NCBI RefSeq assembly: GCF_017640745.1
Contig: NZ_JAEPQA010000014.1
Span: 1-64,000, forward strand
Direction of reading: 5' to 3'
DNA length: 64,000 bases
Origin: Nisaea sp.
Lineage (GTDB): Bacteria; Pseudomonadota; Alphaproteobacteria; Thalassobaculales; Thalassobaculaceae
The notes under the pieces are model-generated. The model did not search any database. It was not told where the DNA came from and saw nothing but the letters and a program-made list of their open reading frames with translations. Shown here in pieces: positions 28,349-48,910 of this stretch (its first letter is position 1; each line of letters begins with the position of its first letter). A program made the position numbers and the translations under genes.

Positions 28349-30085
28349 ATGAGCAGTCCCGACAGTGCCCGGCCTGAGAAAAGCGAGTGGGACGTCATCG
28401 TGCTCGGAGGCGGGGCGGCGGGAATGGCCGCGGCGGTCTTCGCCGCGCTCGAAGGTGCGCGGACCCTGCTCATAGAGCGTTCCGAATATCTCGGCGGCAC
28501 GTCGGCACTGTCGGCCGGAACGGTCTGGATTCCGAACACGCGGCATGCGGCGGAAGTCGGCGCCGAGGATAGCCCGGAACGTGCCGCCGCCTTTCTCGAT
28601 GCTGCGGTCGGGAACAGGGCGCCGAAAGCAATGCGCGATGCCTTTCTCCGTGCGGGTCCCGAAGCGGTCCGTTGCCTTGAGGAGCGGACAGATGTCCGCT
28701 TCCGGGCCCGTCCGTTCCACCCCGACTATCTCTACGAGCTGGAAGGCTCTGTCGCCGGCGGCCGGGCGCTCGAGGCGCTGCCGTTTGACGGTGCCGCGCT
28801 CGGCAGATTTCTGCATCTGCTGAGACCGCCGATTCCTGAATTCACCGTCTTGGGCGGGATGATGGTCGACCGGGACGATATCGGCCATCTGCTGAAGATG
28901 AGCTCTTCGCTCAGATCCCTCGCGCATGGAGTGAGGCTGATCGCCGGTTATGCGGCCGACCGACTACGGTTCGGGCGCGGAGCGCGGCTGGTGATGGGTA
29001 ATGCCCTGACGGGACGGCTGCTGAAAGCGCTGCTGGATCTCGGCGTAGATGTGATGACTGAAGCCGAGGTAACCGATATATCCGCAGCGCCTGACGCGAC
29101 GGGCGTCACCGTAAAGTTCGACGGACGCGTGCGGGACCTTCGCGCGCGCGGCGGTGTGATCCTCGCCTCCGGAGGCTTCGCGCGCCATCCTCAGCGGCGC
29201 CTGGAGATGCTGCCGTCACCGCAACCGGAGTTCAGTCCCGCCGCGCCCGGCAATACCGGGGCGCTGCACGATGTCGCGCTCGGACTCGGTGCACGCTACG
29301 GAGAAGCCGGGGACCAGCCGGTCTTCTGGGCGCCGGTCTCCCGCCGCAGACGCAAGGACGGCAGCATGGCGGTGTTTCCGCATTTCGTGCTCGACCGCTC
29401 CAAGCCGGGGATCCTGTCTGTCGGCCGTGACGGACGGCGCTTCGTCAACGAGAGCCGCTCCTATCACGAGTTCGTCGCGGCCATGTACGCCGCGAACCGG
29501 GATGGCTCGACCATTCCGGCTTACGAGATCACCGATGCCGAGGGGCTCAGGAAATACGGCCTCGGCATGGTGCGGCCGGGCGGACGCGGTCTCGCGCCGT
29601 TCCTTGCCGATGGATATCTGGTCCGGGCGGACAGCCTCGCGGAGCTTGCGGCGAAGCTGGGAATCGACGCGAGAGGCCTTGCAGGCACGGTGGCGCGCAT
29701 GAACGATTTCGCCGAGACCGGCGTGGATCTGGATTTCGGCAGGGGCTCAACTGTCTACGAGCGGGCGAACGGAGATCCGTCGCACGGACCGAACCCGACC
29801 CTCGGGCCGGTCCGGAAACCGCCCTTCTATGCGATCCGGCTCTGGCCGGGGGACATCGGATCGGCCGTCGGGCTGCTCACCGACACCGAGGTCCGCCTTG
29901 TCGATGCCGAGGGCGCGCCGATCGCCGGTCTCTATGCCTGCGGCAACGACATGCATTCGGTGATGGGCGGGGTCTATCCGGCGCCGGGGATCAATCTCGG
30001 CCCGGCGATCGCCTTTGCCTATGTCGCGGGGCGGCATGCCGCCGCCCGCGCGCTCGAAGCTTCGGATCAGCGGCCGACGGCGTAG
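28349..30085 (+). CDS. FAD-dependent oxidoreductase, 3-ketosteroid 1-dehydrogenase/fumarate reductase type
   Basis: A 578-residue flavoprotein. The N-terminal FAD site is VLGGGAAGMAAA, followed by GGTSALSAGTVWIPN. The C-terminal FAD site is ACGNDMHSVMGGVYPAPGINLGPAIAFAY, close to the pattern in 3-ketosteroid delta-1-dehydrogenases. The middle substrate domain has an SRSYHEFVAAM segment. It may oxidise a steroid-like ketone or reduce an enoate; substrate not shown. The frame is open far upstream, but ATG 28349 with AGGA 9 bases before it is the first start followed by a proper Rossmann motif. Its end overlaps the convergent gamma-glutamyltransferase by 19 bases. Confidence 0.88.
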   Translation: MSSPDSARPEKSEWDVIVLGGGAAGMAAAVFAALEGARTLLIERSEYLGGTSALSAGTVWIPNTRHAAEVGAEDSPERAAAFLDAAVGNRAPKAMRDAFLRAGPEAVRCLEERTDVRFRARPFHPDYLYELEGSVAGGRALEALPFDGAALGRFLHLLRPPIPEFTVLGGMMVDRDDIGHLLKMSSSLRSLAHGVRLIAGYAADRLRFGRGARLVMGNALTGRLLKALLDLGVDVMTEAEVTDISAAPDATGVTVKFDGRVRDLRARGGVILASGGFARHPQRRLEMLPSPQPEFSPAAPGNTGALHDVALGLGARYGEAGDQPVFWAPVSRRRRKDGSMAVFPHFVLDRSKPGILSVGRDGRRFVNESRSYHEFVAAMYAANRDGSTIPAYEITDAEGLRKYGLGMVRPGGRGLAPFLADGYLVRADSLAELAAKLGIDARGLAGTVARMNDFAETGVDLDFGRGSTVYERANGDPSHGPNPTLGPVRKPPFYAIRLWPGDIGSAVGLLTDTEVRLVDAEGAPIAGLYACGNDMHSVMGGVYPAPGINLGPAIAFAYVAGRHAAARALEASDQRPTA

Positions 30086-34574: not shown

Positions 34575-35390
34575 TCAGGTTCCGGCGGTCAGCGGCGCCG
34601 TTAGGCGGCGCAGGGTCGCGATGACGCTGAGAGCCGTAATCTTCCCGGTCTTCGGATTTTCCTCCGTCGGAATGTTTTCGATCGTCATGGTGAAACGGGC
34701 GCTGTCGGCCTCGACGCGGATCGTATGCGTGTTCCGGGTCACCTCCGGGTCGGCCCAGATTTGAACCGTTGTCCGGTCGGGACCGATGCCGGCGAGGCTG
34801 AGGGCGGCCGCCACATTGACGTTTGCGGGGAACCCCTTGGCGGCTTCCCGCGCATTGCCTTCAAACACCTTCTTCGCCGTGTTCAGATGCTCGACGGAAA
34901 TATCGTTGTCGACCAGATAGGGGGCGCCGGCAAGTCCGCGCGGCGGCTTGCGGGTCTCGAGCGTGACGGAAGCGATCTCGCCCTCAGCCGCGGCCCGCAC
35001 CGCATCCAGGCCGATCAGCGCGCCGGTCGGCAAAACCAGGCGGGCGCCGGTTTCCTTCGCCCGCTCGACAAGATCCATGTGGTTCAGCAGCGCGCCGATA
35101 CTGACCGGCACGAAAATGCGTCCGGCCTCGATCGCGGACCGGGCGACGGTCTCGAAAACCGCGGCGGGGGCGCATTCGACGACGATGTCGCACTTCTCGG
35201 CCAGGTTCTCCAGCGGGACAACCGGGGCTTCGGCGCCGATGGACTCAAGGTTCTTCCGGGCTTTCTCCGCATCCCGGGCGGAAACGGCGCCAAGTTCGAG
35301 ATCGGGCAGTGTACCGTCGGCTACAGCGCGCGCCAGGGTGAGACCGATGGCTCCAAGACCGCCAATGCCAACTCTAAGCTTCCTACCCAT
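34575..35390 (-). CDS. L-aspartate dehydrogenase-like enzyme
   Basis: A 271-residue NAD(P)-dependent aspartate dehydrogenase. The Rossmann loop is GIGGLGAIG, and family motifs include KPPRGLAGAPYL, GFPANVNVAAALSLAGIGPDRT and the active-site region NTHTI (His). It interconverts L-aspartate and oxaloacetate (or iminoaspartate for NAD synthesis). No nadA or nadC gene is adjacent, so a catabolic role is possible. Convergent with the DUF1217 gene, 19 bases apart. Confidence 0.85.
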   Translation of the reverse strand: MGRKLRVGIGGLGAIGLTLARAVADGTLPDLELGAVSARDAEKARKNLESIGAEAPVVPLENLAEKCDIVVECAPAAVFETVARSAIEAGRIFVPVSIGALLNHMDLVERAKETGARLVLPTGALIGLDAVRAAAEGEIASVTLETRKPPRGLAGAPYLVDNDISVEHLNTAKKVFEGNAREAAKGFPANVNVAAALSLAGIGPDRTTVQIWADPEVTRNTHTIRVEADSARFTMTIENIPTEENPKTGKITALSVIATLRRLTAPLTAGT

Positions 35391-35540: not shown

Positions 35541-36551
35541 ATGCGACAGTTCAGATTCTTATTGCCTCTGATTCTTGCGGCTGCCGCACTGTCCGTGCGG
35601 CCCGGCGTCGTACGTGCTCAAGACCTTTCCTGCATAACCGTATCTCTTATTGTTCCGGCAGCCGTGGGTTCGGCCAGCGACCTCGTGGCACGTGCGGTCG
35701 CCGATGCGGCGAGTGCGCAGGGAGGGAGTACCTATCGCGTGCGCAACCGGCCGCGGGCGATCGCGCAGGACCTGATCGAGGCTGCGGCGCCCAACGGCTG
35801 TACTCTGCTGGTTGACACGCAGATCCGGGTGGCGTTCGAAATCCTGAACGGCGACATGCGTGCCTGGCGCGGACTGACACCTATCGCGCTTCTGACGCAA
35901 ACCCCGATGGCGCTTGCGCTGTCGTCGGGCGGACCCGCGACACCGGCGCCGAAGGGCGAGGAACCCGAACCGCCGCGCCTTGGCAAGATCATTTCCGATC
36001 TGCGCGCCAAACCGGAATCGATGACTTTCGCGCTGGTGGACAACCCCCTCGAAAAGCTGCTTTTCCTGCAGATGGAGGAAGCGCTTGGCGTCCGGTTCCG
36101 AATCCGTAGTTTCCCGAGCGGCATCGCGCGCTATCGCGAAATACTGAATGGGCCGCCCGGTACGCTGGGCTTCGTTTCGCTTAAAGCGGCAAGGGCCAGG
36201 ATGAAGGACAAGGAGCTTCACGTGCTGGCTGTGACCGGCCCGGCTCCCTCCGAACTGCTGCCAGATATTCCCGCTTTGGGAACGGAGGTCCGAGGGCTGA
36301 CGCTGGGCGTGGATCATGGGATCTTCGGTCCGGAGGCACTTCCCGCGGAGATCGCCGCAGCACATGTCGCAACTCTGCAAAAGGTCATGGAGACACGCGG
36401 AGTCCTCGCGAGCCTGCACGAGGACTATGGAACAGAGGCGCGCCTGATCGCAGCGGACGGATTTTCCCGGTATCTGGAAAACCTGGCCGCCGACTGGAAA
36501 GAAATGCTTCAGCGTCAGGACAATAGAGGCCGTCTCGGACAGAAAAGCTGA
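35541..36551 (+). CDS. TctC-like periplasmic binding protein, divergent member
   Basis: A 336-residue exported protein distantly related to tripartite tricarboxylate transporter binding proteins (TctC/Bug). The signal peptide covers about 1-26 (cleavage VRA-QD). It keeps a reduced N-terminal loop (VPAAVGSASDLVARA in place of the usual VPxxAGGxxD) and the ending PALGTEVRGLTLGVDHGIFGP. A proline- and glutamate-rich insertion (about 135-150) is unusual. GGGAGCAGG just before ATG 35541 excludes a start at 35418. No TctA or TctB lies beside it, but the next gene is a canonical TctC. Confidence 0.75.
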   Translation: MRQFRFLLPLILAAAALSVRPGVVRAQDLSCITVSLIVPAAVGSASDLVARAVADAASAQGGSTYRVRNRPRAIAQDLIEAAAPNGCTLLVDTQIRVAFEILNGDMRAWRGLTPIALLTQTPMALALSSGGPATPAPKGEEPEPPRLGKIISDLRAKPESMTFALVDNPLEKLLFLQMEEALGVRFRIRSFPSGIARYREILNGPPGTLGFVSLKAARARMKDKELHVLAVTGPAPSELLPDIPALGTEVRGLTLGVDHGIFGPEALPAEIAAAHVATLQKVMETRGVLASLHEDYGTEARLIAADGFSRYLENLAADWKEMLQRQDNRGRLGQKS

Positions 36552-36764: not shown

Positions 36765-37736
36765 ATGAAGATCAAGACAGCCCTTTTCGCGGCCTTTGCG
36801 ACCGCGTCTGTCGCCCTCGCCGGGGCGCCGGGTGCCGAGGCCGCCGATCTGCCTTGCCGCACCGCCAAACTGATCGTTCCGTGGGGCGCCGGCGGCGGTA
36901 CCGACGTGATTTTCCGCCAGTTCGTTGAGTCGGCCAATGCGGCCGGTGCCAAGCCGCAGATCCAAGTCGTCAATATCGGCGGCCAGGGCGGCAACAAGGG
37001 CGCCAAGGAAGCGCGCGGCTCCAAGCCGGACGGCTGCACCCTGTTCGCCATCCATCAGAGCGCGCTGACCAGCTTCTTCAACGGTCGTGTCGACTTCACC
37101 TGGGACGCTTTCGAGCCGGTAGCCCTGCTGACCCGGACCCCGGCCATCATCGGCGCCAACCCTGACGTTCCGTACAACAACGTCAAGGAACTGGTTGAAG
37201 CCGCGAAGAAGGCTCCGGGTACTGTCGTTGCTGGTGGTACGCTCGGTTCCACCAGTCACTTCATCTTCCTGCTGCTCGAAGACGCGGCGGGCGTGAAGTT
37301 CAAGCACGTTTCCTATGACGGCACCCGTGAGCGCATGACCGCGCTGCTGGCGAAGAACATCGAGATCGGTGAAATCAACCTCGCCGCCGCCAAGAAGTAC
37401 ATCCAGACCAACGAGCTGAAGGCGCTCGGCATCACCACGCCGGCGCGCAATCCGGAAATCCCGGACGTCATGACCCTGCAGGAGCAGGGCTATGACCTGA
37501 TCTACGGTACGGACCGCGGTATCGTTCTGCCGAAGGGCGCGAGCCAGGAAGTGATCGATCACTATGCCGCGATCTTCGAGAAGGCGGCGCAGGATCCGAA
37601 AGTGGTCGAGGCGATGACCGCCAAGGGCACCGCGGTCAATTATCTCGGCCCGAAAGAGTACACCGACTACTTCGAAAAGACCTTCGCGGCCTGGAAGCGG
37701 ATCGCGATTGAGGTTGGACTTTACAAAGGCAGCTGA
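36765..37736 (+). CDS. tctC: Tripartite tricarboxylate transporter substrate-binding protein
   Basis: A 323-residue TctC/Bug-family binding protein. The signal peptide covers 1-27 (cleavage AEA-AD). The canonical ligand loop VPWGAGGGTD, the VNIGGQGGNKG segment and the LARTPAIIG-like strand are present. The C-terminus has GTDRGIVLPKGA. It captures a carboxylate in the periplasm for TctAB. The downstream dgcN and dgcA genes suggest D-glutamate or a related acid. GGGAGA at 36753-36758 selects ATG 36765. A strong hairpin separates it from tctB. Confidence 0.9.
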   Translation: MKIKTALFAAFATASVALAGAPGAEAADLPCRTAKLIVPWGAGGGTDVIFRQFVESANAAGAKPQIQVVNIGGQGGNKGAKEARGSKPDGCTLFAIHQSALTSFFNGRVDFTWDAFEPVALLTRTPAIIGANPDVPYNNVKELVEAAKKAPGTVVAGGTLGSTSHFIFLLLEDAAGVKFKHVSYDGTRERMTALLAKNIEIGEINLAAAKKYIQTNELKALGITTPARNPEIPDVMTLQEQGYDLIYGTDRGIVLPKGASQEVIDHYAAIFEKAAQDPKVVEAMTAKGTAVNYLGPKEYTDYFEKTFAAWKRIAIEVGLYKGS

Positions 37737-37753
37737 TTAAACAGCCCTGCGGG

Positions 37754-37791
37754 CGGCGGCTCCCGGTCCACGGGAGCCGCCGTTTCTATTT
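37754..37791 (+). terminator. Terminator/attenuator hairpin between tctC and tctB
   Basis: A 12-base-pair perfect stem (37754-37765 with 37771-37782, loop GTCCA) followed by TTTCTATTT. It lies 18 bases after the tctC stop and 28 bases before tctB. It would cut most transcripts and leave more binding protein than permease. Confidence 0.75.
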
Positions 37792-37818
37792 CGCCGATAC
37801 GAGTTTGGAGGATAGCCG

Positions 37819-38304
37819 GTGGGCCGGTTGAACCGAGATACGCTGATAGCGCTTGTGCTCCTGGTTTTTTGCGGGGTCATGTTCTCCGCCAGTTTTGAGA
37901 TCGAGGTCACGAACTACGGGACCATGCAGTCGAGTGTCTGGCCGCAGGTCGTGCTCGTGGTGCTGACGGTCTTCAGTCTCGGACTGCTCGGTCAGAGCAT
38001 TGTGAAACCGCGCGCTGTTGAAGCTTCGGCGGAAGCCGCGCCGGCGGGGCTCGGCCGGTTCCGCAACGCGCTGATTGTCTATGTGCTGTTCTTCCTGTTT
38101 CTGCTGACCCTGGATCTGCTGGGCATGCTGCTCGGCGGTGTCGGTTTCGTCTTCCTTGCGTTGACCCTTCTTGGCGAGCCCAGCCTGAAGCGGGTCCCGC
38201 TCCATCTTCTCATCGCCGTGGCGATGGTCGGTATCATGTGGAGCATCTTCACCTTCGGTCTCGGCGTGCTGCTGCCGGACGGCGAACTTCTGCAGCTGAA
38301 CTGA
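37819..38304 (+). CDS. tctB: Tripartite tricarboxylate transporter small permease
   Basis: A 161-residue TctB-type membrane protein with four hydrophobic segments (about 8-28, 40-62, 84-110 and 130-153). The only charged cluster is a loop near 63-80. It pairs with TctA as the small subunit. GTG start; the tctA gene begins 10 bases after the stop. The order tctC-tctB-tctA is standard. Confidence 0.88.
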   Translation: MGRLNRDTLIALVLLVFCGVMFSASFEIEVTNYGTMQSSVWPQVVLVVLTVFSLGLLGQSIVKPRAVEASAEAAPAGLGRFRNALIVYVLFFLFLLTLDLLGMLLGGVGFVFLALTLLGEPSLKRVPLHLLIAVAMVGIMWSIFTFGLGVLLPDGELLQLN

Positions 38305-38314
38305 GGAGCGCGCG

Positions 38315-40003
38315 ATGCTTGACCATATCCTCTACGCCTTCTCCGACGTCTTCGCGGTCTGGAACCTCGCCCTGATGACGATCGGGGTGACCGCCGGTCT
38401 GATCGCCGGCGCCATTCCCGGTTTCACCATTGCGATGGCGATCGTCCTGACGCTGCCCTTTACCTTCGGTCTCAGCCCGGTCGAGGGGCTCGCCACCATG
38501 ATCGGCGTCTTCGTCGGCGGTCTCTCGGGCGGCCTGATGTCCGGCATGCTGACCGGCATTCCCGGAACGCCGTCCTCCATCGCGACCACCTTCGACGGTT
38601 TCCCGCTTGCGCGCGGGGGCAAGCCTGGCTTCGCGCTTGGTCTCGGCGTCTGGTCGTCCTTCTTCGGCGGTCTGATCAGTGCCGTGCTTCTCGTCACCCT
38701 GGCCCCGAGCCTCGCCGTAATCGGCCTGGAGTTCGGGCCCTGGGACTATTTCTCGCTGGTGCTTTTCGCGCTGACCATTACGGCGAGCCTTTCCGGCGAG
38801 AATCTCATGAAGGGGATGATCGCGGGTGCGCTCGGCCTCTTCATCGGTACGGTCGGCGAGGACGAGGTCAACGGCGTCGCGCGCTTCACCTTCGGCTTCG
38901 ACGATCTCGAATCCGGCTTTTCCTTCCTGCCGGTGCTGATCGGTCTCTTCGCCTTCAGCCAGCTGCTTTCCGATATCCAGGACCGGGTGAAGGCCCGCGA
39001 GCCGCTGATGGACGTCAGCGGCACCGACGGACGGGTCCGGGTCGAGCATCTGGCCGCGATCCGTACCATCCTTTCGCGCTGGACCAACCTCGTGCGCTCC
39101 TCCCTCATCGGCGTCTTCACCGGCGTGCTGCCGGCCGCCGGCGGGTCGATCTCCAACATTCTCGCTTATGACCAGGCGAAGAAGGCATCGAAGACCCCGG
39201 AGAAATTCGGCACCGGCATTCCGGACGGCATCATCGCGCCGGAATCCTCCAATAACGCCACTGCCGGCGGCGCGCTGATCACCATGATGGCGCTCGGCAT
39301 TCCGGGAGACATCGTCACCGCCGTGATGCTTGGCGCGCTGCTAATCCACAACGTGCAGCCGAGCCCGACCTTCATCAGCGACAATCCGGATCTCGCCTAC
39401 GCGATCTTCATCGCCTTCTTCCTTGCGCATTTCATCATGATCGCGATGCAGTCGGTGACGCTGAAGCTGTTCCTCCTGGTGACCCGGATCCCGATGTACG
39501 TGCTGGCATCGGTGATCCTCGCCTATTGTGCGATCGGCGTGTTCGCGCTCAACAACATTGTCTACGACATCTGGGTGCTGTTCTTCTTCGGCGTGGCCGG
39601 CTACATCCTGCGCCTGCTCGGCTTCCCGCTGGCGCCGATCATCCTCGGTGTCGTGCTGGGACATGTGGCCGAGCTGAACCTGTCGCGGGCGCTCTCGATC
39701 GACAACGATCTGATGCTGTTCCTCAGCCGCCCCTGGTCGCTCTTCTTCCTTGTCGTCGCGGCCTTCTCGATCGCCTTCCCGTGGTACCAGAAGCTGCGTG
39801 GCACGCAATCCTGGACGCTGGCCTATGTCCCGGCGCTCCTCGCCGCGGTCGCGGTCCCGATGTTCATGATGGAGGGGATCGCCCGTCCGATTATCGGTGT
39901 GGCGCTGCTCGCGGTTTCCGCCTATCTTCTCTGGAGAAGTGCGAAAGCCGGATGGAAAGTGGCGCCCGAAGGCGACCACGAAGTCCATCTCGAAGAAACC
40001 TGA
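38315..40003 (+). CDS. tctA: Tripartite tricarboxylate transporter large permease
   Basis: A 562-residue integral membrane protein of the TctA family with 11 or more TM segments. Family motifs are GAIPGFTIAMAIVLTLPFTF, TGIPGTPSSIATTFDGFPLARGGKPGFALG, VLPAAGGSISNILAYDQAKK, and APESSNNATAGGALITMMALGIPG, the last being a strong signature. It imports the carboxylate delivered by TctC using the ion gradient. Followed 126 bases later by the dgcN-like gene. Confidence 0.93.
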   Translation: MLDHILYAFSDVFAVWNLALMTIGVTAGLIAGAIPGFTIAMAIVLTLPFTFGLSPVEGLATMIGVFVGGLSGGLMSGMLTGIPGTPSSIATTFDGFPLARGGKPGFALGLGVWSSFFGGLISAVLLVTLAPSLAVIGLEFGPWDYFSLVLFALTITASLSGENLMKGMIAGALGLFIGTVGEDEVNGVARFTFGFDDLESGFSFLPVLIGLFAFSQLLSDIQDRVKAREPLMDVSGTDGRVRVEHLAAIRTILSRWTNLVRSSLIGVFTGVLPAAGGSISNILAYDQAKKASKTPEKFGTGIPDGIIAPESSNNATAGGALITMMALGIPGDIVTAVMLGALLIHNVQPSPTFISDNPDLAYAIFIAFFLAHFIMIAMQSVTLKLFLLVTRIPMYVLASVILAYCAIGVFALNNIVYDIWVLFFFGVAGYILRLLGFPLAPIILGVVLGHVAELNLSRALSIDNDLMLFLSRPWSLFFLVVAAFSIAFPWYQKLRGTQSWTLAYVPALLAAVAVPMFMMEGIARPIIGVALLAVSAYLLWRSAKAGWKVAPEGDHEVHLEET

Positions 40004-40129
40004 GCCGCAGCGGCTCGCATTCCGGATCCGTCCGGAAGCGGGCCGCCCCGCGTCCGCAGAGGCCACGCACGGCTCTAGTCCTGCTCCGTCCGGGGCGATG
40101 CGTAACCCTATTTATCTCAAGGTGACGTC

Positions 40130-41131
40130 GTGGAAATCCGCCATCCCTATCTCATGTTCCTGGGCGATGCGCCCGATCAGCTCGCAGCCAAGACCGCGAA
40201 CGGCGTGAAGGTCTGGCGCCCCGAATGGTGCCTCGGTCAGCTCCGTCTGCCTGGCTGCAAGGCCGATCTGAAGCTTCCCGACATGACCATCGAGGAAGCC
40301 GCCGCTGCCGGCGTGAAGACCGTGATCCTGGGCGTCGCGAACCGCGGCGGCGTGATCGGCGAGAGCTGGATGGTCGAGCTTGAGAAAGCTCTCGACCACG
40401 GCATGGAGATCGCGAGCGGCCTGCATACCAAGATCGCCACGATCCCGGCGCTGGCGGAAAAGGCGAAGGCCAAGGGGCTCGGCCTCTATGACGTGCGTCA
40501 CCCGAAGGGCAATTTCTCCGTTGCGAACGGCAAGAAGCGGTCCGGCAAGCGGCTGCTTCCGGTCGGGACCGACTGTTCCGTCGGCAAGATGTTCACCGCG
40601 CTTGCGATCGAGAAAGAGCTGCACAATCGCGGCGTGAAGGCGACCTTCCGCGCGACCGGGCAGACCGGCATCTTCATCGCCGGGTCCGGCGTTTCCGTCG
40701 ATGCGGTGATCGCAGACTTCATCTCTGGCGCTGTCGAGGAACTGGCTCCGGCCAATGAGGCCGATCACTGGGATCTGGTCGAAGGGCAGGGCTCGCTCTT
40801 CCACGCCTCCTATGCCGGCGTGACCATGGGCCTGATCCATGGCGCCCAGCCGGATGCCATGGTGCTTTGCCACGAGGCCAACCGTCCGCACATGCGCGGC
40901 CTGCCGGAATATCCGGTGCCGAGCCTGAGCGAATGCATCCCCTACTACCTGCAGGCTGCCCGCCTGACCAACCCGGATGCGAAATTCGTCGGCGTCTGCA
41001 TCAATACCTCGAGCCTCGACGATGCCGCGGCGGAAGCGTTCCTGAAGCAGGCGAGCGACGAGACCGGCCTGCCGGCGGTCGATCCGATCCGCAACGGGGT
41101 CGGCGCCATCGTCGACAACATGGACATCTGA
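40130..41131 (+). CDS. dgcN: DUF1611 protein, DgcN-type D-glutamate N-acetyltransferase
   Basis: A 333-residue DUF1611 protein. It has an N-terminal Rossmann-like half (VILGVANRGGVIGESW at about 65-80) and a P-loop-like half with PVGTDCSVGKM (144-154), followed by RATGQTGIFIAGSGVSVDAV and LVEGQGSLFHASYAGV. This pattern matches DgcN, described as acetylating D-glutamate to N-acetyl-D-glutamate in marine bacteria. The neighbouring dgcA-type epimerase is the diagnostic partner. GTG start with AAGGTGA just upstream. Assignment rests on family plus synteny; substrate not proven here. Confidence 0.82.
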   Translation: MEIRHPYLMFLGDAPDQLAAKTANGVKVWRPEWCLGQLRLPGCKADLKLPDMTIEEAAAAGVKTVILGVANRGGVIGESWMVELEKALDHGMEIASGLHTKIATIPALAEKAKAKGLGLYDVRHPKGNFSVANGKKRSGKRLLPVGTDCSVGKMFTALAIEKELHNRGVKATFRATGQTGIFIAGSGVSVDAVIADFISGAVEELAPANEADHWDLVEGQGSLFHASYAGVTMGLIHGAQPDAMVLCHEANRPHMRGLPEYPVPSLSECIPYYLQAARLTNPDAKFVGVCINTSSLDDAAAEAFLKQASDETGLPAVDPIRNGVGAIVDNMDI

Positions 41132-41175
41132 TCCGGATCTGATCCGGCAGGCGGCGAAGCATAAGGGGAAAGTTG

Positions 41176-42162
41176 ATGTACCGGTCGGTCTCGGTCAGAC
41201 GCGAAAAATGGCCCTTGCAGGGCGTCTTCCGGATCTCCCGCGGCGCGCGGACGGAATCGGAAGTGATCGTGGTCGAGATCGCCGGCGACGATGTCGACGG
41301 TCTCGGCGAATGCTTTCCCTATGCACGCTACGGCGAGACGCTTGACAGCGTGACGGCGCAGATCGAATCCGTCGCGGGCGAGATCGCCAACGGCATGGAC
41401 CGGAAGGGGGTGCTCTCGGCCCTGCCGCCCGGTGCCGCACGCAATGCGATCGATTGCGCGCTCTGGGACTTCGAGGCGAAGAAAACCGGCAAGCGGGCCT
41501 GGGAACTCGCCGGCCTGCCGGAACCGAAGCCCGTGACCACGGTCTATACTCTCGGCGTCGACGAGCCGGAGGTGATGGGACAGAAGGCCAAGGCCAATGC
41601 CTCCCGGCCGGTCCTCAAGCTGAAGATGACCGGCGACGGAAAGGATCTGGAGCGCGTCGCGCTGATTCATGAGAATGCGCCGAACACCAAACTCGTCGTC
41701 GATGCCAACGAAGGCTGGAGCGTCGCGCAGTACGAGGAGTATGCGCCGCAATTCGCCAAACTCGGTGTGACGATGATCGAGCAGCCTTTGCCGGCCGGCA
41801 AGGACGAGGGCCTGAAGGGCCTCGATCGGGTGGTGCCGGTCTGCGCCGACGAAAGCTGCCATGACAGCGAGACGCTCGACGATCTCGTCGGCAAGTACGA
41901 CATGATCAACATCAAGCTCGACAAGACCGGGGGGCTCACAGAAGCGCTCCGTCTGCGCGACCGGGCGCTGTCCATGGGCTTCGAGGTCATGGTCGGCTGC
42001 ATGGTCGGCACCTCGCTCGCCATGGCGCCGGGGGTTGTGGTGGCGCAGGGCGCCAAGGTGGTCGATCTGGACGGACCGCTGCTCCTCGCGAAGGACCGCG
42101 AGCCGGGCCTGGTCTATGAGGGCAGCCTGGTGCAACCGCCGGATTTCCGGCTCTGGGGCTGA
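41176..42162 (+). CDS. dgcA: Enolase-superfamily epimerase, DgcA-type N-acetyl-D-glutamate racemase
   Basis: A 328-residue enolase-superfamily enzyme of the muconate lactonizing/dipeptide epimerase subgroup. Catalytic residues are in place: KLK (Lys148, Lys150), Asp176 in VVDANEG, Glu202 in IEQPL, Asp225 in CADES, and the second base Lys247 in INIKLDK. Two lysines on opposite faces fit racemisation. Beside DUF1611 it is expected to convert N-acetyl-D-glutamate to N-acetyl-L-glutamate; L-Ala-D/L-Glu epimerase is the alternative. AAGGGGAA precedes ATG 41176 by about 7 bases. Confidence 0.85.
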   Translation: MYRSVSVRREKWPLQGVFRISRGARTESEVIVVEIAGDDVDGLGECFPYARYGETLDSVTAQIESVAGEIANGMDRKGVLSALPPGAARNAIDCALWDFEAKKTGKRAWELAGLPEPKPVTTVYTLGVDEPEVMGQKAKANASRPVLKLKMTGDGKDLERVALIHENAPNTKLVVDANEGWSVAQYEEYAPQFAKLGVTMIEQPLPAGKDEGLKGLDRVVPVCADESCHDSETLDDLVGKYDMINIKLDKTGGLTEALRLRDRALSMGFEVMVGCMVGTSLAMAPGVVVAQGAKVVDLDGPLLLAKDREPGLVYEGSLVQPPDFRLWG

Positions 42163-42166
42163 TCCG

Positions 42167-43015
42167 GTGGGCGAGCGGCCGGACGTCACGGAGCATTACA
42201 GTTCCGAAAGCGGTCTGGCCGACCGGCTGATCGCGATCCTCGAGAAAGCCGGGATCGCCCGGGACGAAATCACCGAAGCCAATCTCCATTCCGTCGACCA
42301 GATGCATCTGCGTGGCCGCGTCGCCGCGGAAGAGTTCCTCGACGCGCTGGATATCCATGCGGGCGACAAGGTACTGGATGTGGGCTGCGGCCTTGGCGGG
42401 CCGTCCCGCATGGCGGCGGCACGCTATCGGGCAGACGTCAGCGGGATCGACCTAACCGCCGATTTCTGCGACGCGGCTCGGCAGCTGAACGCGCTGGTCG
42501 GGCTGGAGCGCATCCGGATCGAGCAGGGCGATGCGCTTGCCATGCCGTTTGCCGACGACAGTTTCGATGTCATTTTCACCCTGCATGTGGCGATGAACAT
42601 CGCCGACAAGCAGGCGCTCTACCGCGAGATTGCTCGTGTCCTCAAACCCGGCGGGCGGTTCGGGCTCTACGACATTGTCGCCGGATCGGGTGAGCCGGTG
42701 CATCTGCCGGTTCCCTGGGCCACTCTGCCCGATCATTCGCACCTCGTCCCGGCCGAAGAGATCGAGGTCGCGGTACATGCCGCGGGCTTCGTCACGGAGC
42801 GCTTCGAGGACCAGTCGGCCCTGGTCGAGGCTTACCTCGACGCGCAGCGTGAAGCCCGCCAGATGCGGGCGGAGAAAGGCGAGCCGGAGCCGCCCTCTGG
42901 TGCGCCCGTTATCATGGGCGAGGCCTTTGCCCGGAAACAGAAACACATCTATCGCAATTTGAAGGAGGGTCGGATCGCGGTCCGCCTTGGTATCTTCCGA
43001 TTGCAGGAAAAGTGA
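42167..43015 (+). CDS. Class I SAM-dependent methyltransferase
   Basis: A 282-residue methyltransferase. The SAM loop VLDVGCGLGGPSR lies near 65-77, then GIDLTADFC, GDALAMPFADDSFDVIF and LKPGGRFGLYDIV, close to the UbiE/sarcosine-dimethylglycine methyltransferase group. The GTG start at 42167 lies 4 bases after the dgcA stop, so it is cotranscribed with the D-glutamate cluster. Its substrate is unknown and its link to that pathway unexplained. Confidence 0.85.
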   Translation: MGERPDVTEHYSSESGLADRLIAILEKAGIARDEITEANLHSVDQMHLRGRVAAEEFLDALDIHAGDKVLDVGCGLGGPSRMAAARYRADVSGIDLTADFCDAARQLNALVGLERIRIEQGDALAMPFADDSFDVIFTLHVAMNIADKQALYREIARVLKPGGRFGLYDIVAGSGEPVHLPVPWATLPDHSHLVPAEEIEVAVHAAGFVTERFEDQSALVEAYLDAQREARQMRAEKGEPEPPSGAPVIMGEAFARKQKHIYRNLKEGRIAVRLGIFRLQEK

Positions 43016-43052: not shown

Positions 43053-44216
43053 ATGTCGACCGATGCCGAGGTGATCGCCGAGATCCGGCGGGCCGTAGCG
43101 ACGCTCTGCGCCGATTTTCCGGGCGAGTACTGGCGCGAGAAGGACCGCGAGCGGGCCTATCCGACGGAATTCGTGCAGGCGCTGACGGAGTCCGGTTATC
43201 TCGCGGTCCTGATCCCCGAGGAGTACGGTGGCAGCGGTCTTTCGATCAGCGCCGCCGCGGCGATCCTGGAAACGATCCACCGCAGTGGCTGCAGCGGTGG
43301 CGCCTGCCACGCGCAGATGTACATCATGGGCACGCTGCTCCGGCACGGCTCTGAAGAGCAGAAGCGGAAATACCTGCCGAAGATCGCCAGCGGCGAGCTC
43401 CGCCTGCAGGCCTTCGGCGTGACCGAGCCGACCAGCGGCACCGACACGCTCTCTCTTTCCACCACGGCTGTGAAGAAGGGCAATACGAAATACGTCGTGA
43501 ACGGGCAGAAGGTCTGGACCTCGCGCGCCGAGCATTCCGACCTGATGCTGCTGCTTGCCCGGACCACGCCGAAGGAAGAGGTGAAGAAGCGCACCGAGGG
43601 CCTCTCGGTCTTCATCGTCGACATGCGCGAGGCCAAGGGCAACGGTCTTGAGATCCGGCCGATCCGCGCCATGGTCAACCACTCCACGACCGAGGTCTTC
43701 TTCGACAATCTTGAGATCCCGGCCGATAGCCTGATCGGCGAGGAGGGCAAGGGATTCCGCTATATCCTCGACGGGATGAACGCGGAGCGCATCCTGATCT
43801 CCCACGAGAGCCTCGGCGACGCCCGCTGGTTCATCGAGAAGGCGACGAAATACGCGAGCGAGCGCAAGGTCTTCGGCCGGCCGATCGGGCAGAACCAGGG
43901 GGTCCAGTTCCCGATCGCGAAGGCCTATGCAGAGACCGAGGCGGCGGCGCTGATGGCGGAGAAGGCGGCGCAGCTCTTCGAGGCCGGAGAGCCCTGCGGC
44001 GCAGAGTCCAACATGGCTAAGATGCTGGCGGCGGAAGCGGCCTGGGCGGCGGCGGATACCTGCTTGCAGACTCATGGCGGCTTCGGTTTCGCCGAGGAGT
44101 ACGATGTCGAACGCAAGTTCCGCGAGGCCCGGCTGTTCCGGACCGCGCCGATCTCGACCAACATGATCCTTGCCTACATCGCGGAGCATGTCCTCGGCAT
44201 GCCCCGCTCCTACTGA
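43053..44216 (+). CDS. Acyl-CoA dehydrogenase
   Basis: A 387-residue acyl-CoA dehydrogenase with all three domains: N-terminal helices with IPEEYGGSGLS, a middle beta domain with FGVTEPTSGTDT and VNGQKVWTS (FAD contacts), and C-terminal helices with ASERKVFGRPIGQNQGVQ and HGGFGFAEEYDVER. It desaturates a CoA thioester, passing electrons to ETF. The CaiB-type gene follows 16 bases downstream, so the pair likely activates and oxidises an organic acid. AGGGAGGA precedes ATG 43053. Confidence 0.92.
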   Translation: MSTDAEVIAEIRRAVATLCADFPGEYWREKDRERAYPTEFVQALTESGYLAVLIPEEYGGSGLSISAAAAILETIHRSGCSGGACHAQMYIMGTLLRHGSEEQKRKYLPKIASGELRLQAFGVTEPTSGTDTLSLSTTAVKKGNTKYVVNGQKVWTSRAEHSDLMLLLARTTPKEEVKKRTEGLSVFIVDMREAKGNGLEIRPIRAMVNHSTTEVFFDNLEIPADSLIGEEGKGFRYILDGMNAERILISHESLGDARWFIEKATKYASERKVFGRPIGQNQGVQFPIAKAYAETEAAALMAEKAAQLFEAGEPCGAESNMAKMLAAEAAWAAADTCLQTHGGFGFAEEYDVERKFREARLFRTAPISTNMILAYIAEHVLGMPRSY

Positions 44217-44232: not shown

Positions 44233-45357
44233 ATGACAAAACCTCTCGACGGAATGCTGGTGCTCTCCATCGATCAGGCGGTGGCCGCGCCCTACTGCGC
44301 CTCCCGCCTCGCAGATGCCGGTGCGCGGGTGATCAAGGTCGAGCGCGCGGAGGGCGACTTTGCGCGCGGCTACGACCACGAGGTGCATGGCGAGAGCGCT
44401 TTCTTCCTCTGGCTGAACCGGGGCAAGGAGAGTCTCGTCGCGGATCTGAAGAACCCGGACGACCGCGCGCTGCTGCACCGGATCCTCGCGAAGGCCGACG
44501 TCTTCATCCAGAATCTCGCGCCCGGCGCGACGGACCGGATGGGCCTCGGATCGGACGAGCTGCGCAAACACTATCCGCGGCTGACCACGGTGGATATCAG
44601 CGGCTATGGGGACGAGGGGCCCTATGCCGAGATGAAGGCCTACGACTTCCTCGTCCAGGCGGAGAGCGGGCTGATCTCGGTGACCGGCTCGAAAGAGGAG
44701 ATGGGCCGGGTCGGGGTTTCGATCTGCGACATCGCCTGCGGCATGTTCGCCCGGATCGCGGTGCTCGAGGCGCTGCTGCTGCGCGGTCGGACGGGCGAGG
44801 GGAGCCAGATCAAGGTTTCTCTCTTCGGCGGCATGACCGAATGGATGTCGCCCTGGCTGCTGCATGAGGCCTACGGGGTGCTGAAGGAGCAGCGGATCGG
44901 TCTCAACCATCCTGCCATCGTGCCCTATGGGGCCTACGCCTGCGCCGGTGGGGACATGATCCTGATCGCGGTGCAGAACGACCGCGAGTGGCGCAAGCTC
45001 TGTGCGTCCGTGCTCGGCGACGAGAGCCTCGCGGACGACGAACGCTTCCGCACCAATACCGACCGCGTTGCCAACCGCGAGGGTGTGAATGCCGTGATCG
45101 ACCGTGTCTTCGGAGGCCTGACCCGCGAGCAGGTGAAGGAGAAGCTGAAAGCGGCCGGCATCGCCTTCGGCGCGATCAACAGCGTCGCCGATGTGCTGGC
45201 GCATCCGGCGTTGCGCCGTGTTCCGGTGGAAACGCCTGTCGGCACGATCGAGACGGTGGCGCCGCCGGCGAGCTTCACCGGCATGGACAATACGTTCCGT
45301 CCGGTGCCGCGCCTTGGCGAACATAGCGAGGCAATCAGGGCCGAATTTTCGGCCTGA
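44233..45357 (+). CDS. CaiB/BaiF family III CoA-transferase
   Basis: A 374-residue family III CoA-transferase. The catalytic aspartate is Asp166 in SICDIACG. Other markers are DAGARVIKVERAEGDFAR, FLWLNRGKESL and a GYGDEGPYAEMKAYDFLVQAESG block. It moves CoA between carboxylic acids, probably feeding the acyl-CoA dehydrogenase 16 bases upstream. GGGGAGG precedes ATG 44233. A strong terminator follows. Confidence 0.92.
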   Translation: MTKPLDGMLVLSIDQAVAAPYCASRLADAGARVIKVERAEGDFARGYDHEVHGESAFFLWLNRGKESLVADLKNPDDRALLHRILAKADVFIQNLAPGATDRMGLGSDELRKHYPRLTTVDISGYGDEGPYAEMKAYDFLVQAESGLISVTGSKEEMGRVGVSICDIACGMFARIAVLEALLLRGRTGEGSQIKVSLFGGMTEWMSPWLLHEAYGVLKEQRIGLNHPAIVPYGAYACAGGDMILIAVQNDREWRKLCASVLGDESLADDERFRTNTDRVANREGVNAVIDRVFGGLTREQVKEKLKAAGIAFGAINSVADVLAHPALRRVPVETPVGTIETVAPPASFTGMDNTFRPVPRLGEHSEAIRAEFSA

Positions 45358-45380
45358 AGATACTCTTCTCCCAAACGAAA

Positions 45381-45408
45381 ACGCCCGGCTCGAAGCCGGG
45401 CGTTTTTT
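45381..45408 (+). terminator. Rho-independent terminator after the CoA-transferase gene
   Basis: A 10-base-pair perfect stem (45381-45390 with 45394-45403, loop CGA) followed by TTTTT. On the minus strand the upstream A tract makes it usable for the convergent dctM transcript as well. Confidence 0.85.
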
Positions 45409-45425: not shown

Positions 45426-47030
45426 CTAGTTCAGCAGCACGCTTGGCAGCCAGAGCGTGATTTCCGGAATGGCGACCACGATCCCGAGGCCGATCAGCTG
45501 CAGGATCACAAACGGGATGATCCCGCGATAGATCTGCTGCATCGAGACCATCTCCTTGGCCACACCCTTCATGTAGAAGAGCGCGAAGCCGAAGGGCGGC
45601 GTCAGGAAGGAGGTCTGCAGGTTGATCGCGACGATGATCGCGAACCAGTAGAGCACCTGCTGCTGTACAAACTCGATCTGCGCATTGTTCGTCGGCACTT
45701 CGAGCCCGAGATGCGGCGCGAATTCCGGCGCCATGGTCTGGATCACCGGCGCGAAGACCGGAAGGATGATCAGCGTGATCTCCAGCCAGTCGAAGAAGAA
45801 GCCGAGGATGAAGACCACGAACATCAACATGAACAGGAGCGGCCACGGGCCGAGCTCGAGCCATTCGATGAACTCGATGATCAGGTCTTCGCCATAGACG
45901 TTGCGGAAGATCGTCGAGAAGGCCGTCGCGCCGACGAAGATCAGGAAGATCATCGCTGTGGTGAGACCGGTCCGGTGCACGACGTCGCGCAGCACTTCCT
46001 TGTTCAGCGTCCCGTTGGCGAAGGCCAGGATCAGGGAACCGAAGGCACCGACGCCGGCGGCTTCCGTCGGCGTCGCCCAGCCGGCGAAGATGGAGCCGAG
46101 CACGAGCGTGATCAGGAAGATCGGCGGCACGAAGCCCTTCAGGATACCGCCGAGATAGCTGTCGCCTTCCATGCGTCCGATGATCATCGAGATCCCGAAC
46201 ACCATCAGGAAGCCGATCAGACCCCAGTTGAACACATCCGCGAGATGGGATTCCGCCATGATGTAGCAGAAAGCCATGGCTGCGGCGCTGAAACCGAAGA
46301 ATTTCAGGATGTTCTTCTTGTTGCTGGGTTCCATCTGGATCGCGTCTTCGGCGATCGCCGGCGCCTTCTCGGGCGAGATGATCCCGATCACCACAATGTA
46401 AACGACATAGAGGCCGGACAGCAGCAGGCCCGGGAAGATGGCCCCGACGAAGAGGTTGCCGACCGAGACGGCCAGCAGGCTTCCCATCAGCACCAGCATG
46501 ATCGACGGCGGGATCAGAATGCCGAGGGTCGCGCTGGCCGCCAGAGTGCCTGTTGCGAGCGAACGGTCGTATTTCTGGGAGATCATGGTGGGAAGCGCCA
46601 TCAGGGTCATCATGACGACGGATGCGCCGATGATGCCCGTGGTCGCGGCCATGATCGTGCCCATGACCGTCACCGCGAGGGCGAGGGCTCCCGGAACGCG
46701 CCGGAACAGAACCTGCAGGATATGCAGGAGATCTTCCGCGACCTTGGACCGCTCGAGCATCGTTCCCATGAAAACGAAACATGGGATCGCCACCAGAATG
46801 GGGTTCTGGATCGCTCCCGAAGCCCCGTCGCCGCCCCAGATCCGTTGGACGACCTGGAAGAAGACCGCGAAATCGAGCACATCGAGCCAGATCCCGAGGA
46901 GGCCGAACGAGACCGCGACGCCGCCGAGCGCGAAGGCCACGGGAAGTCCCGTGAAGAGCATCAGCGCGAGCGCAAGGAACATGTACGCTCCGATGAACTC
47001 GTAGAAATGATCGTAAAGAACCTCAAACAT
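45426..47030 (-). CDS. dctM: TRAP transporter large permease
   Basis: A 534-residue DctM-type membrane protein with about 12 TM segments. Family markers include FTGLPVAFALGG, IPCFVFMGTMLERS, GIIGASVVMMTLMALPTM, SATLGILIPPSIMLVLMG and ATPTEAAGVGAFG. The length exceeds a minimal DctM (about 430) because of an insertion near 230-300 with extra hydrophobic stretches. Sodium-driven import of an organic acid captured by DctP. Convergent with the CoA-transferase gene. Confidence 0.92.
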   Translation of the reverse strand: MFEVLYDHFYEFIGAYMFLALALMLFTGLPVAFALGGVAVSFGLLGIWLDVLDFAVFFQVVQRIWGGDGASGAIQNPILVAIPCFVFMGTMLERSKVAEDLLHILQVLFRRVPGALALAVTVMGTIMAATTGIIGASVVMMTLMALPTMISQKYDRSLATGTLAASATLGILIPPSIMLVLMGSLLAVSVGNLFVGAIFPGLLLSGLYVVYIVVIGIISPEKAPAIAEDAIQMEPSNKKNILKFFGFSAAAMAFCYIMAESHLADVFNWGLIGFLMVFGISMIIGRMEGDSYLGGILKGFVPPIFLITLVLGSIFAGWATPTEAAGVGAFGSLILAFANGTLNKEVLRDVVHRTGLTTAMIFLIFVGATAFSTIFRNVYGEDLIIEFIEWLELGPWPLLFMLMFVVFILGFFFDWLEITLIILPVFAPVIQTMAPEFAPHLGLEVPTNNAQIEFVQQQVLYWFAIIVAINLQTSFLTPPFGFALFYMKGVAKEMVSMQQIYRGIIPFVILQLIGLGIVVAIPEITLWLPSVLLN

Positions 47031-47081
47031 CTTGGATATCGCCGCCCCTGGATTTATCGCCGGTTTTCATGATCAATCCGC

Positions 47082-47696
47082 TCATTCCGGCTTGTGGTGC
47101 TCGTAGTTGAAGATTTCCAAAGCGTCTCTCGCTTCCTCATGCTCTTCGCGCGTGCCGAACAGGTAGGCCGCGAGCCGGAACAGGGTGGCAAAGATCGCCA
47201 GAGCCAGGACGACGCAGCCGATCAGCATGAATCCCTTGATGACGTAGCGCCAAGGAATGCCGGTCATGGATTCCGAGCCTTCGCCCTGCAAATAGGAGAT
47301 CGAGACCAGCACCCAGGATTCCCAGGCAACCGCGAACAGGAACGGAAGGGCGAGTACCAACAGCCCGATGAATTCCATCCAGGCCTGCTTGCGCGGCCGA
47401 ATGTGCTCGCGGAAGACGTCGACGCGGACATGGGCGTTGGCGAGATATCCGAACCCGAATGTCAGCAGCAGGATGATGCCGTGCAGGTGCCACTGCATGT
47501 CCTGAAGGATAGTCGAGACCGAGTATCCGTAATCGATGGAGAACTGGGAGAAGTAGAGGCGAATGAAATCCACCTTCCGGGTCACGACATCGAAGACGAT
47601 CATGAGCACGAGCGGGACGATGAGCCATGCCGCCGCCTGGCCCATATTTCGGGACCATCGATCAAGAACGCTCGCAAGGTTAAGCGCGGCTTTCAT
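47082..47696 (-). CDS. dctQ: TRAP transporter small permease
   Basis: A 204-residue DctQ-type membrane protein with four TM helices (about 17-34, 68-86, 104-128 and 150-176). The family signature GYLANAHVRVDVFREH sits between helices 2 and 3. ATG 47696 has a weak GGGG site; an upstream in-frame start at 47792 would add an unlikely polar leader. It lies 51 bases before dctM and 158 bases after dctP, with a terminator hairpin in that gap. Confidence 0.88.
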   Translation of the reverse strand: MKAALNLASVLDRWSRNMGQAAAWLIVPLVLMIVFDVVTRKVDFIRLYFSQFSIDYGYSVSTILQDMQWHLHGIILLLTFGFGYLANAHVRVDVFREHIRPRKQAWMEFIGLLVLALPFLFAVAWESWVLVSISYLQGEGSESMTGIPWRYVIKGFMLIGCVVLALAIFATLFRLAAYLFGTREEHEEARDALEIFNYEHHKPE

Positions 47697-47802
47697 AAAT
47701 GAAACCCCATTTGGATGAGAGTGAGAGACTGATCCCTTGAACCGCTCGGTTGCTGGAAGCGGTCTGACCTTGTCGAGCCGGTCCGTTCTCAAGGGGCATC
47801 AA

Positions 47803-47840
47803 ACAGAAAAGTCGGGAGACCCTTCGAAAAGGGTCTCCCG
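47803..47840 (-). terminator. Terminator/attenuator hairpin between dctP and dctQ
   Basis: A 12-base-pair perfect stem (47813-47824 with 47829-47840, loop CGAA). On the minus strand it is followed by ACTTTTCTGTTT. It sits 14 bases after the dctP stop and should leave excess binding protein over permease. Confidence 0.75.
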
Positions 47841-47854
47841 CATTTAAGCGTCTC

Positions 47855-48910
47855 TTATTTCAGGTAACCGCGGTCACCCCAGACCTTGAAGCCCTCGTTG
47901 AACTTCGTGTAGCTGTCCCAGAGCTTCTGGACGTCGGGGTTGGCCGCCAGCTCTTCCGCCAGCACTTCTTCCCACTTCGCCTTGAACTGGGCGAGCTGGT
48001 CGGACGTCCAGTTGACCATCTCCACGCCGTCTTTCTGGTTGGCGATCATCGCCTCGAACTGGGAGGCTTCGCCGTCGGCGATCATGTCGGTCACGTTCTT
48101 GTCGCACGCGATCTCGAGCATGGCCCGCTGACCGTCGGACAGAGCGTTCCACTTGTCCATGTTGATCAGCAGTTCGTTGGAGGTGGACTGCTGGTGCCAG
48201 CCCGGGAAGTAGTTGTACTTGGCGATCTGGTAGAAGCCGTAGGAACGGTCGATCGCCGGCATGGAGAATTCGGTGGCGTCGATCGTGCCACGCTCCAGGG
48301 CCGGGTAGATGTCGCCGCCAGCAAGCTGCTGGGTCGAAACACCGAACTTCTGCATGACCTTCGCGCCGACGCCGAAGAAGCGCATCTTCAGGCCCTTCAG
48401 CTCATCGAGGCTCTCGATCTTCTTACGGAACCAGCCGGAAGTCTCCGGCGGGATCATGCCGCAGAGCAGATATTTGATGTTGTCGCGGCCGTAGAGTTCC
48501 TCGCCGATCTGCGTACCGCCGCCATATTTGAACCAGGCGACGAATTCCGGCGCTGCCGGGCCGAACGGCCAGGTCGACAGGAACGCGTAGGCCGAGTTCT
48601 TGCCCTGGTTGGCGCCCGGGGTACCGAAGGCCGCGTCGATCGCGCCCTGGCTGATCGGGTCGTAGTAGGCATAGCCACCGGTCAGAGCGCCCGGCTCGAA
48701 GACCTTGATGTCGAAATCGCCGTCGGACATCCGTCCGATGCCTTCGGCGATACGGTGCGGCGGCGGGCCCAGAACCTTGACGTTCTGGCCGAACGCAGCG
48801 TGCATTTTCCAGCGAACTTTCTTGGCCTCGGCATCGCCGGAACCAATACCAATCGCCACAGTCGAAGCGATCGCAAGCGCTCCAAACGTCTTAAGCAAAC
48901 CCAATTTCAT
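47855..48910 (-). CDS. dctP: TRAP transporter substrate-binding protein
   Basis: A 351-residue DctP-family periplasmic protein with a signal peptide (1-29, cleavage AEA-KK). It contains the conserved LKGLKMRFFGVGAKVMQKFGVS block, whose Arg (about residue 179) binds the ligand carboxylate, then QQLAGGDIYPALERGTIDATEF. The Phe-rich YGFYQIAKYNYFPGWHQQST region resembles members that take keto acids or mannitol-like ligands. Ligand unknown; the adjacent convergent CoA-transferase and dehydrogenase genes suggest an organic acid. Confidence 0.92.
   Translation of the reverse strand: MKLGLLKTFGALAIASTVAIGIGSGDAEAKKVRWKMHAAFGQNVKVLGPPPHRIAEGIGRMSDGDFDIKVFEPGALTGGYAYYDPISQGAIDAAFGTPGANQGKNSAYAFLSTWPFGPAAPEFVAWFKYGGGTQIGEELYGRDNIKYLLCGMIPPETSGWFRKKIESLDELKGLKMRFFGVGAKVMQKFGVSTQQLAGGDIYPALERGTIDATEFSMPAIDRSYGFYQIAKYNYFPGWHQQSTSNELLINMDKWNALSDGQRAMLEIACDKNVTDMIADGEASQFEAMIANQKDGVEMVNWTSDQLAQFKAKWEEVLAEELAANPDVQKLWDSYTKFNEGFKVWGDRGYLK

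What the first reader, a model, noticed from the sequence alone, without database searches (positions are those of the whole stretch)
36765..43015. Predicted D-glutamate uptake and catabolism cluster: tctCBA + dgcN + dgcA + methyltransferase
A complete tripartite transporter lies in one transcription direction with a DUF1611 protein and an enolase-superfamily epimerase whose K-x-K, D, E, D, K catalytic set is intact. The DUF1611-epimerase pair is the hallmark of the DgcN-DgcA route (D-Glu to N-acetyl-D-Glu to N-acetyl-L-Glu). The new element is the transporter linkage, which predicts the TTT ligand, and the cotranscribed methyltransferase with no known part in the route. The N-formylglutamate amidohydrolase-family gene at 50884 is a candidate deacylase elsewhere in the window.
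Basis: partly seen in the sequence, partly recalled or inferred. Interest (0 to 1): 0.75.

Follow-up and report, generated by a model that had tools for sequence, protein, structure and literature searches.

The report
D-acidic amino acid catabolism island
A Nisaea-type marine bacterium carries the known DgcN-DgcA genes for D-glutamate use in one likely operon with a three-part importer whose relatives in other bacteria mostly sit beside an aspartate dehydrogenase gene, so the importer likely brings in aspartate-type acids and not D-glutamate alone.

Summary
The genes are real. tctCBA-dgcN-dgcA-methyltransferase lie on one strand, and the likely operon runs on through an acyl-CoA dehydrogenase and a CoA-transferase to a terminator-like hairpin at 45377-45407. 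DgcN and DgcA pass NCBI's curated cut-offs; the enzyme pair is already known. Three surveys change the reading. (1) The transporter-dgcN link is almost confined to the Nisaea family (TctA within 10.5 kb of dgcN in 11 of 28 family loci; 2 of 72 loci of other families, both distant copies). Outside the family, TctC homologues sit divergently beside aspartate dehydrogenase (7 of 9 readable loci); none of the 10 fetched stretches holds dgcN. The window has the same AspDH, divergent, upstream. The ligand is therefore more likely aspartate-type than D-Glu alone. (2) The partner of dgcN that recurs across families is a GGT-like Ntn-hydrolase (window 30067-31848): 13 of 72 other-family loci, always upstream on the opposite strand, 7 within about 215 bp. 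(3) The methyltransferase follows dgcA in 17 of 26 readable family loci and is near dgcN in none of 72 others. Best model: a D/L-aspartate and D-glutamate utilisation island built from an AspDH-TTT module and a DgcN-DgcA module. Import, ligand and deacylation are inferred. New variant of a known kind.

The parts
30067..31848 (-). GGT-like Ntn-hydrolase (Pfam G_glu_transpept; not a canonical gamma-glutamyltransferase)
   Evidence: PF01019 387 bits; TIGR00066 275 bits, below its 358 cut-off; nearest solved chain 6j3a, 667 bits; homologues upstream of dgcN on the opposite strand in 13 of 72 other-family loci
34575..35390 (-). L-aspartate dehydrogenase (AspDH), divergent to the SBP genes
   Evidence: NF009825 367 bits, cut-off 253; within 10.5 kb upstream of dgcN on the opposite strand in 23 of 28 family loci
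35541..36551 (+). second, diverged TctC-type solute-binding protein (TctC2) with a degenerate carboxylate loop (VPAAVGSASD)
   Evidence: PF03401 39 bits, cut-off 27; same SBP clade as tctC; loop
36765..37736 (+). tctC, TTT solute-binding protein
37819..38304 (+). tctB, small TTT membrane subunit
   Evidence: PF07331 47 bits
38315..40003 (+). tctA, large TTT membrane subunit
   Evidence: PF01970 461 bits
40130..41131 (+). dgcN, predicted D-amino acid N-acetyltransferase (DUF1611)
   Evidence: NF041892 537 bits, cut-off 480; PDB 7xrj 425 bits
41176..42162 (+). dgcA, predicted N-acetyl-D-glutamate racemase, enolase superfamily
   Evidence: NF042940 494 bits, cut-off 400; PDB 4gfi 350 bits; catalytic residues invariant in 175 of 175 rows
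42167..43015 (+). class I SAM methyltransferase, substrate unknown
   Evidence: PF08241 84 bits; GTG start from the sequence and orthologues; follows dgcA in 17 of 26 readable family loci
43053..44216 (+). acyl-CoA dehydrogenase
   Evidence: PF00441 131 bits; no NCBIfam equivalog cut-off reached
44233..45357 (+). CaiB/BaiF class III CoA-transferase
   Evidence: PF02515 344 bits; best NCBIfam succinate-glutarate CoA-transferase 223 bits, below its 750 cut-off
45377..45407 (+). terminator-like hairpin closing the likely operon
   Evidence: 14-pair stem with T tail; 11 such sites in the region against 7.0 in shuffles
45426..48910 (-). TRAP transporter dctM, dctQ, dctP, convergent with the operon
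   Evidence: PF06808, PF04290, PF03480; TRAP genes follow caiB on dgcN's strand in 7 of 28 family loci
50884..51900 (-). N-formylglutamate amidohydrolase family protein, candidate deacylase
   Evidence: PF05013 242 bits; TIGR02017 97 bits, below its 279 cut-off; within 10.5 kb of dgcN, same orientation, in 8 of 72 other-family and 0 of 28 family loci

Best explanation
This is a DgcN-DgcA locus joined to an aspartate-dehydrogenase/TTT module, and it is predicted to take up and use D- and L-aspartate together with D-glutamate: TctCBA would import the acidic amino acid, DgcN would N-acetylate the D form, DgcA would racemise the N-acetyl product, a still unproven deacylase would free the L form, and AspDH would deaminate L-aspartate to oxaloacetate. 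Shown here: gene identities, gene order, the AspDH link of TctC homologues in other families, and the recurring GGT-like link of dgcN in other families. Inferred: co-transcription and operon end, ligand, direction of transport, deacylase identity, and any role of the methyltransferase, acyl-CoA dehydrogenase and CoA-transferase. Candidates for the deacylase, or for the step that releases the D-amino acid, are the GGT-like Ntn-hydrolase and the N-formylglutamate amidohydrolase family protein.
For: DgcN, DgcA and AspDH pass curated cut-offs. AspDH is upstream on the opposite strand within 10.5 kb of dgcN in 23 of 28 family loci; of the other five, four end within 3.5 kb upstream of dgcN (L088, L109, L110, L113) and L086 shows 7 kb without it. 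10 TctC homologues of other families (49-67% identity; 10 of 385 class genomes at E <= 1e-90): AspDH divergent next door in 7, absent in 2, contig too short in 1; dgcN or dgcA in 0 of the 10 stretches. The 34 SBP rows of the family's blocks (window's two included) and these 10 form one group (100/99) apart from 22 other TctC-type SBPs. AspDH also stands directly divergent to dgcN without a TTT gene in the stretch in L111 and L112 and, outside the family, in L127. [quoted passage not shown] A review lists aspartate for BugD and glutamate for BugE, both TTT SBPs (PMC5812351, passages read).
Confidence: 0.5

Rival explanations
1. One reading: the TTT is a dedicated D-glutamate importer for DgcN-DgcA.
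For: tctA is followed by dgcN on the same strand, 126 bp apart, with no + strand terminator-like site in the gap; TctA within 10.5 kb of dgcN in 11 of 28 family loci; BugE, a TTT SBP, held glutamate in its crystal (PMC5812351 passages).
Against: TctC homologues of other families sit with AspDH and not with dgcN (7 of 9 readable; 0 of 10 stretches); TctA near dgcN in 2 of 72 other-family loci, both distant copies (30-33% identity) at 5-10 kb.
Confidence: 0.2
2. Positional linkage only: the TTT serves the acyl-CoA dehydrogenase/CoA-transferase part (a dicarboxylate route) or AspDH alone and has no role in D-amino acid use.
For: Flagellar genes are interleaved in the family; CaiB and ACD genes lie together with MaoC or MmgE/PrpD genes on plasmids of three genera, with no dgcN annotated in the stretches shown; in Roseomonas also with a TTT SBP and a CoA ester lyase.
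Against: ACD-CaiB stands with dgcN-dgcA also in L020 and L032, and ACD alone in L127 and CaiB alone in L133; dgcN directly follows tctA or an SBP gene in most family loci despite rearrangements.
Confidence: 0.18
3. Murein-peptide recycling: DgcA works mainly as an L-Ala-D/L-Glu epimerase and the GGT-like enzyme frees peptide-bound D-Glu.
For: The D297-x-D299 motif is invariant in 175 of 175 DgcA rows and the aligned E. coli Ala-Glu epimerase has the same DLDGP. That this motif binds the free ammonium of a dipeptide is recalled, not from a call.
Against: NF042940 DgcA cut-off met, NF011708 Ala-Glu epimerase cut-off not met; dgcA lies within 10.5 kb of dgcN in 71 of 72 other-family loci, which fits the N-acetyl route.
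Confidence: 0.12

Closest known systems
DgcN-DgcA D-glutamate pathway (Pseudoalteromonas sp. CF6-2; source paper not held, recalled)
   Same: Both enzymes present, adjacent, above curated cut-offs.
   Different: Joined to an AspDH-TTT module, a methyltransferase, ACD and CaiB; the regulator DgcR (recalled) was not looked for.
Tripartite tricarboxylate transporters with Bug-type SBPs (BugD aspartate, BugE glutamate)
   Different: Genes encoded with catabolic enzymes; a second diverged SBP; clade linked to AspDH.
L-aspartate dehydrogenase, NadX/PRK13302 type
   Same: NF009825 cut-off met.
   Different: Here divergent to a TTT and a D-amino acid operon.
Gamma-glutamyltransferase family (PF01019)
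   Same: Thr expected to be catalytic present in 48 of 48 homologues with letters there.
   Different: Below the TIGR00066 cut-off; Gln where the E. coli enzyme has Arg in FREMAP (alignment; 51 of 52 with letters); N-terminus without an obvious signal peptide (by eye).

Membership tests
DgcN (NF041892) | score over curated cut-off | tested here: met
   537 bits against 480
DgcN (NF041892) | D-amino acid N-acetyltransferase activity | not testable with these tools
   needs enzyme assay
DgcA (NF042940) | score over curated cut-off | tested here: met
   494 bits against 400
DgcA (NF042940) | enolase-superfamily catalytic set K-x-K, D, E, D, K | tested here: met
   invariant in 175 of 175 rows; shared with the E. 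coli Ala-Glu epimerase
DgcA (NF042940) | N-acetyl-D-Glu racemase activity | not testable with these tools
   needs enzyme assay
L-Ala-D/L-Glu epimerase (NF011708) | score over curated cut-off | tested here: not met
   323 bits against 343
Tripartite tricarboxylate transporter | TctA, TctB and TctC domains over Pfam cut-offs | tested here: met
Tripartite tricarboxylate transporter | D-Glu or Asp as ligand | tested here: inconclusive
L-aspartate dehydrogenase (NF009825) | score over curated cut-off | tested here: met
   367 bits against 253
Gamma-glutamyltransferase (TIGR00066) | score over curated cut-off | tested here: not met
   275 bits against 358
N-formylglutamate deformylase HutG (TIGR02017) | score over curated cut-off | tested here: not met
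   97 bits against 279; Pfam FGase met
DgcN-DgcA locus with regulator DgcR | regulator gene DgcR with dgcN-dgcA (recalled) | not tested
   no search for such a regulator was made

The most novel reading that the evidence does not exclude
The island is a complete D-aspartate/D-glutamate catabolon: an AspDH-coupled TTT forms a dedicated aspartate-type import and deamination module, and the GGT-like Ntn-hydrolase encoded divergently from dgcN across Alphaproteobacteria is the missing step of the DgcN-DgcA route, either the N-acetyl-L-Glu/Asp deacylase or the enzyme that releases D-Glu from peptides.
Probability: 0.25. Interest if true: 0.62.

Novelty: new variant of a known kind. Interest (0 to 1): 0.42.

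Why it matters
D-Glu and D-Asp come from bacterial cell walls and dissolved marine organic matter, and how bacteria import them is poorly known (general knowledge, not from a call). If right, the locus gives a testable importer and ties aspartate dehydrogenase to a transporter clade. The GGT-like gene beside dgcN in several alphaproteobacterial families gives the known DgcN-DgcA route a concrete third enzyme to test.
Full report
WHAT IS THERE. The reported genes are present with open frames. DgcN (537 bits, cut-off 480) and DgcA (494, cut-off 400) pass the curated NCBI models; the Ala-Glu epimerase model does not (323 against 343). Nearest solved chains by sequence are 7xrj for DgcN and 4gfi, then the E. 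coli Ala-Glu epimerase 1jpd, for DgcA. The genome is of the genus Nisaea by its nearest named relatives (DgcN 89% to two Nisaea species; methyltransferase 87% to Nisaea acidiphila). The likely operon is tctC-tctB-tctA-dgcN-dgcA-MT-ACD-caiB with gaps of 82, 10, 126, 44, 4, 37 and 16 bp (with the methyltransferase start set to GTG 42167), followed by a 14-pair terminator-like hairpin at 45377-45407. That scan found 11 terminator-like sites against 7.0 in shuffles and one promoter-like site against 1.9, so it is weak evidence. Upstream are a second, diverged TctC and, divergent to it, an aspartate dehydrogenase (367 bits, cut-off 253). Co-transcription is inferred.

HOW FAR THE TRANSPORTER LINK REACHES. 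dgcN was sought in 36 genomes of the order (29 with it) and 289 of the class (75 with it). I read the surroundings in 28 further genomes of the window's family and in 72 of 73 from other families. By one uniform count (tblastn with window proteins, within 10.5 kb of dgcN, bit thresholds as in the script; stretches cut by contig ends are kept as misses): family: DgcA 20 of 28, AspDH 23, TctC-type SBP 23, TctA 11, TctB 10, GGT-like 13, methyltransferase 10, ACD 14, CaiB 12, DctM 10, N-formylglutamate amidohydrolase family 0. Other families: DgcA 71 of 72, GGT-like 13, N-formylglutamate amidohydrolase family 8, SLT 4, AspDH 2, TctA 2, TctC 2, TctB 0, methyltransferase 0, ACD 1, CaiB 1, DctM 2. 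So the TTT link is real in the family and nearly absent outside it. In the named set, TctA stands upstream of dgcN in 5 of 80 loci (L006, L007, L010, L011, L030).

WHAT THE TRANSPORTER IS LINKED TO ELSEWHERE. A search of 385 class genomes for the window TctC (E <= 1e-90) found 13, of which 10 lie outside the family. AspDH is divergent next to TctC in 7 (L234, L236, L237, L238, L239, L240, L242), absent in L235 and L241, and unreadable in L233, whose contig ends about 0.3 kb upstream of tctC. dgcN and dgcA are in none of the 10 stretches. A tree of 66 SBPs puts the 34 SBP rows of the family's blocks and these 10 in one group (100/99), apart from 22 other TctC-type SBPs; several rows have long branches. 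I read this as an AspDH-TTT module that came to lie beside dgcN in the window's family. The reverse is weaker: of the other-family genomes with AspDH over the cut-off, three (G014, G061, G128) show the pair and one (G050) has both genes on different contigs; the phylum-wide check was cut short.

ONE REARRANGED BLOCK. In seven genomes dgcA was found on another contig or far from dgcN. In five of them (L186-L190) it stands with the GGT-like gene, with the methyltransferase after it; between the two lies a FliL gene (Pfam in L186; look-alikes by eye in L188 and L190). In the other two (L191, L192) the contig shows dgcA with the methyltransferase only. L190 shows TctA-B-C, AspDH, a DUF1217 flagellar-type gene, GGT-like, dgcA, methyltransferase and ACD in one row. 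The window's 30-45 kb holds this gene set in another order. Because flagellar genes are mixed in, in-family closeness alone is weak evidence for function. The methyltransferase follows dgcA in 17 of 26 readable family loci; in the other 9 ACD follows dgcA without it. In seven family loci (L089, L090, L093, L095, L111, L112, L113) TRAP genes follow caiB on the same strand.

A PARTNER THAT RECURS ACROSS FAMILIES. The GGT-like gene is upstream of dgcN on the opposite strand in 13 of 72 other-family loci (one of them, L142, holds a distant copy), 7 of them within about 215 bp (L116, L129, L144, L163, L165, L170, L175). In the other 59 it is not near. In the class sample the close subfamily occurs in 35 of 73 other-family dgcN genomes against 16 of 212 without dgcN, and lies within 12 kb of dgcN in 12 of the 35 (not corrected for relatedness or genome size). 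It is not a canonical GGT: it misses the TIGR00066 cut-off, and where the E. coli enzyme has Arg in FREMAP it has Gln (alignment; 51 of 52 homologues with letters). That this Arg binds the substrate carboxylate is recalled. The Thr expected to be catalytic is kept in 48 of 48. Its substrate is open.

HOW IT LIKELY WORKS. Import of an acidic amino acid by TctCBA (inferred), N-acetylation of the D form by DgcN and racemisation by DgcA (inferred from curated family membership), deacylation (enzyme unknown, two candidates), then deamination of L-Asp by AspDH (inferred from family). [quoted passage not shown] The TctC model (pLDDT 91) matches the 11 solved TTT SBP entries alike, so the ligand is not settled.

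NOVELTY. DgcN-DgcA and TTTs are known kinds. New here, as far as I could look, are the AspDH link of this TTT clade, the family-specific fusion of the two modules, and the GGT-like/dgcN divergent pair. I found no held paper that pairs AspDH with TTT. The primary DgcN paper is not held, so its gene-context statements are unchecked and the GGT-like link may be in it.

Noticed in passing
window 35541-36551: TctC2 keeps the TctC family match but has lost the usual carboxylate-loop glycines (VPAAVGSASD). Related SBPs stand beside dgcN without TctBA in the stretch in several genera of the family, so they may be orphan or sensory SBPs.
   Followed up: partly
window 52093-53251: tRNA-Val (52093-52167) followed by a phage-type integrase (52268-53251); GC falls to 0.55 at 56-60 kb. 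Looks like an integrated element starting just right of the island.
   Followed up: partly
L100 and L101, downstream of dgcN: A 114-aa protein without Pfam match directly follows dgcN; homologues occur elsewhere near the island, e.g. L106 and L112.
   Followed up: no
L172 (genome G054, another family): A TRAP transporter (DctP, DctQ, DctM) stands upstream of dgcN-dgcA on the same strand, an independent transporter partner for this enzyme pair.
   Followed up: no
L114, L169 and 12 other loci (ORF cluster 16): A hexapeptide-repeat protein of about 200 aa precedes dgcN on the same strand in 14 other-family loci, ending 12-13 bp before the dgcN match in the two looked at.
   Followed up: partly
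window 27335-30085: An IclR regulator (-) and an FAD-binding flavoprotein (+) lie left of the GGT-like gene; whether the regulator acts on the island is unknown.
   Followed up: no
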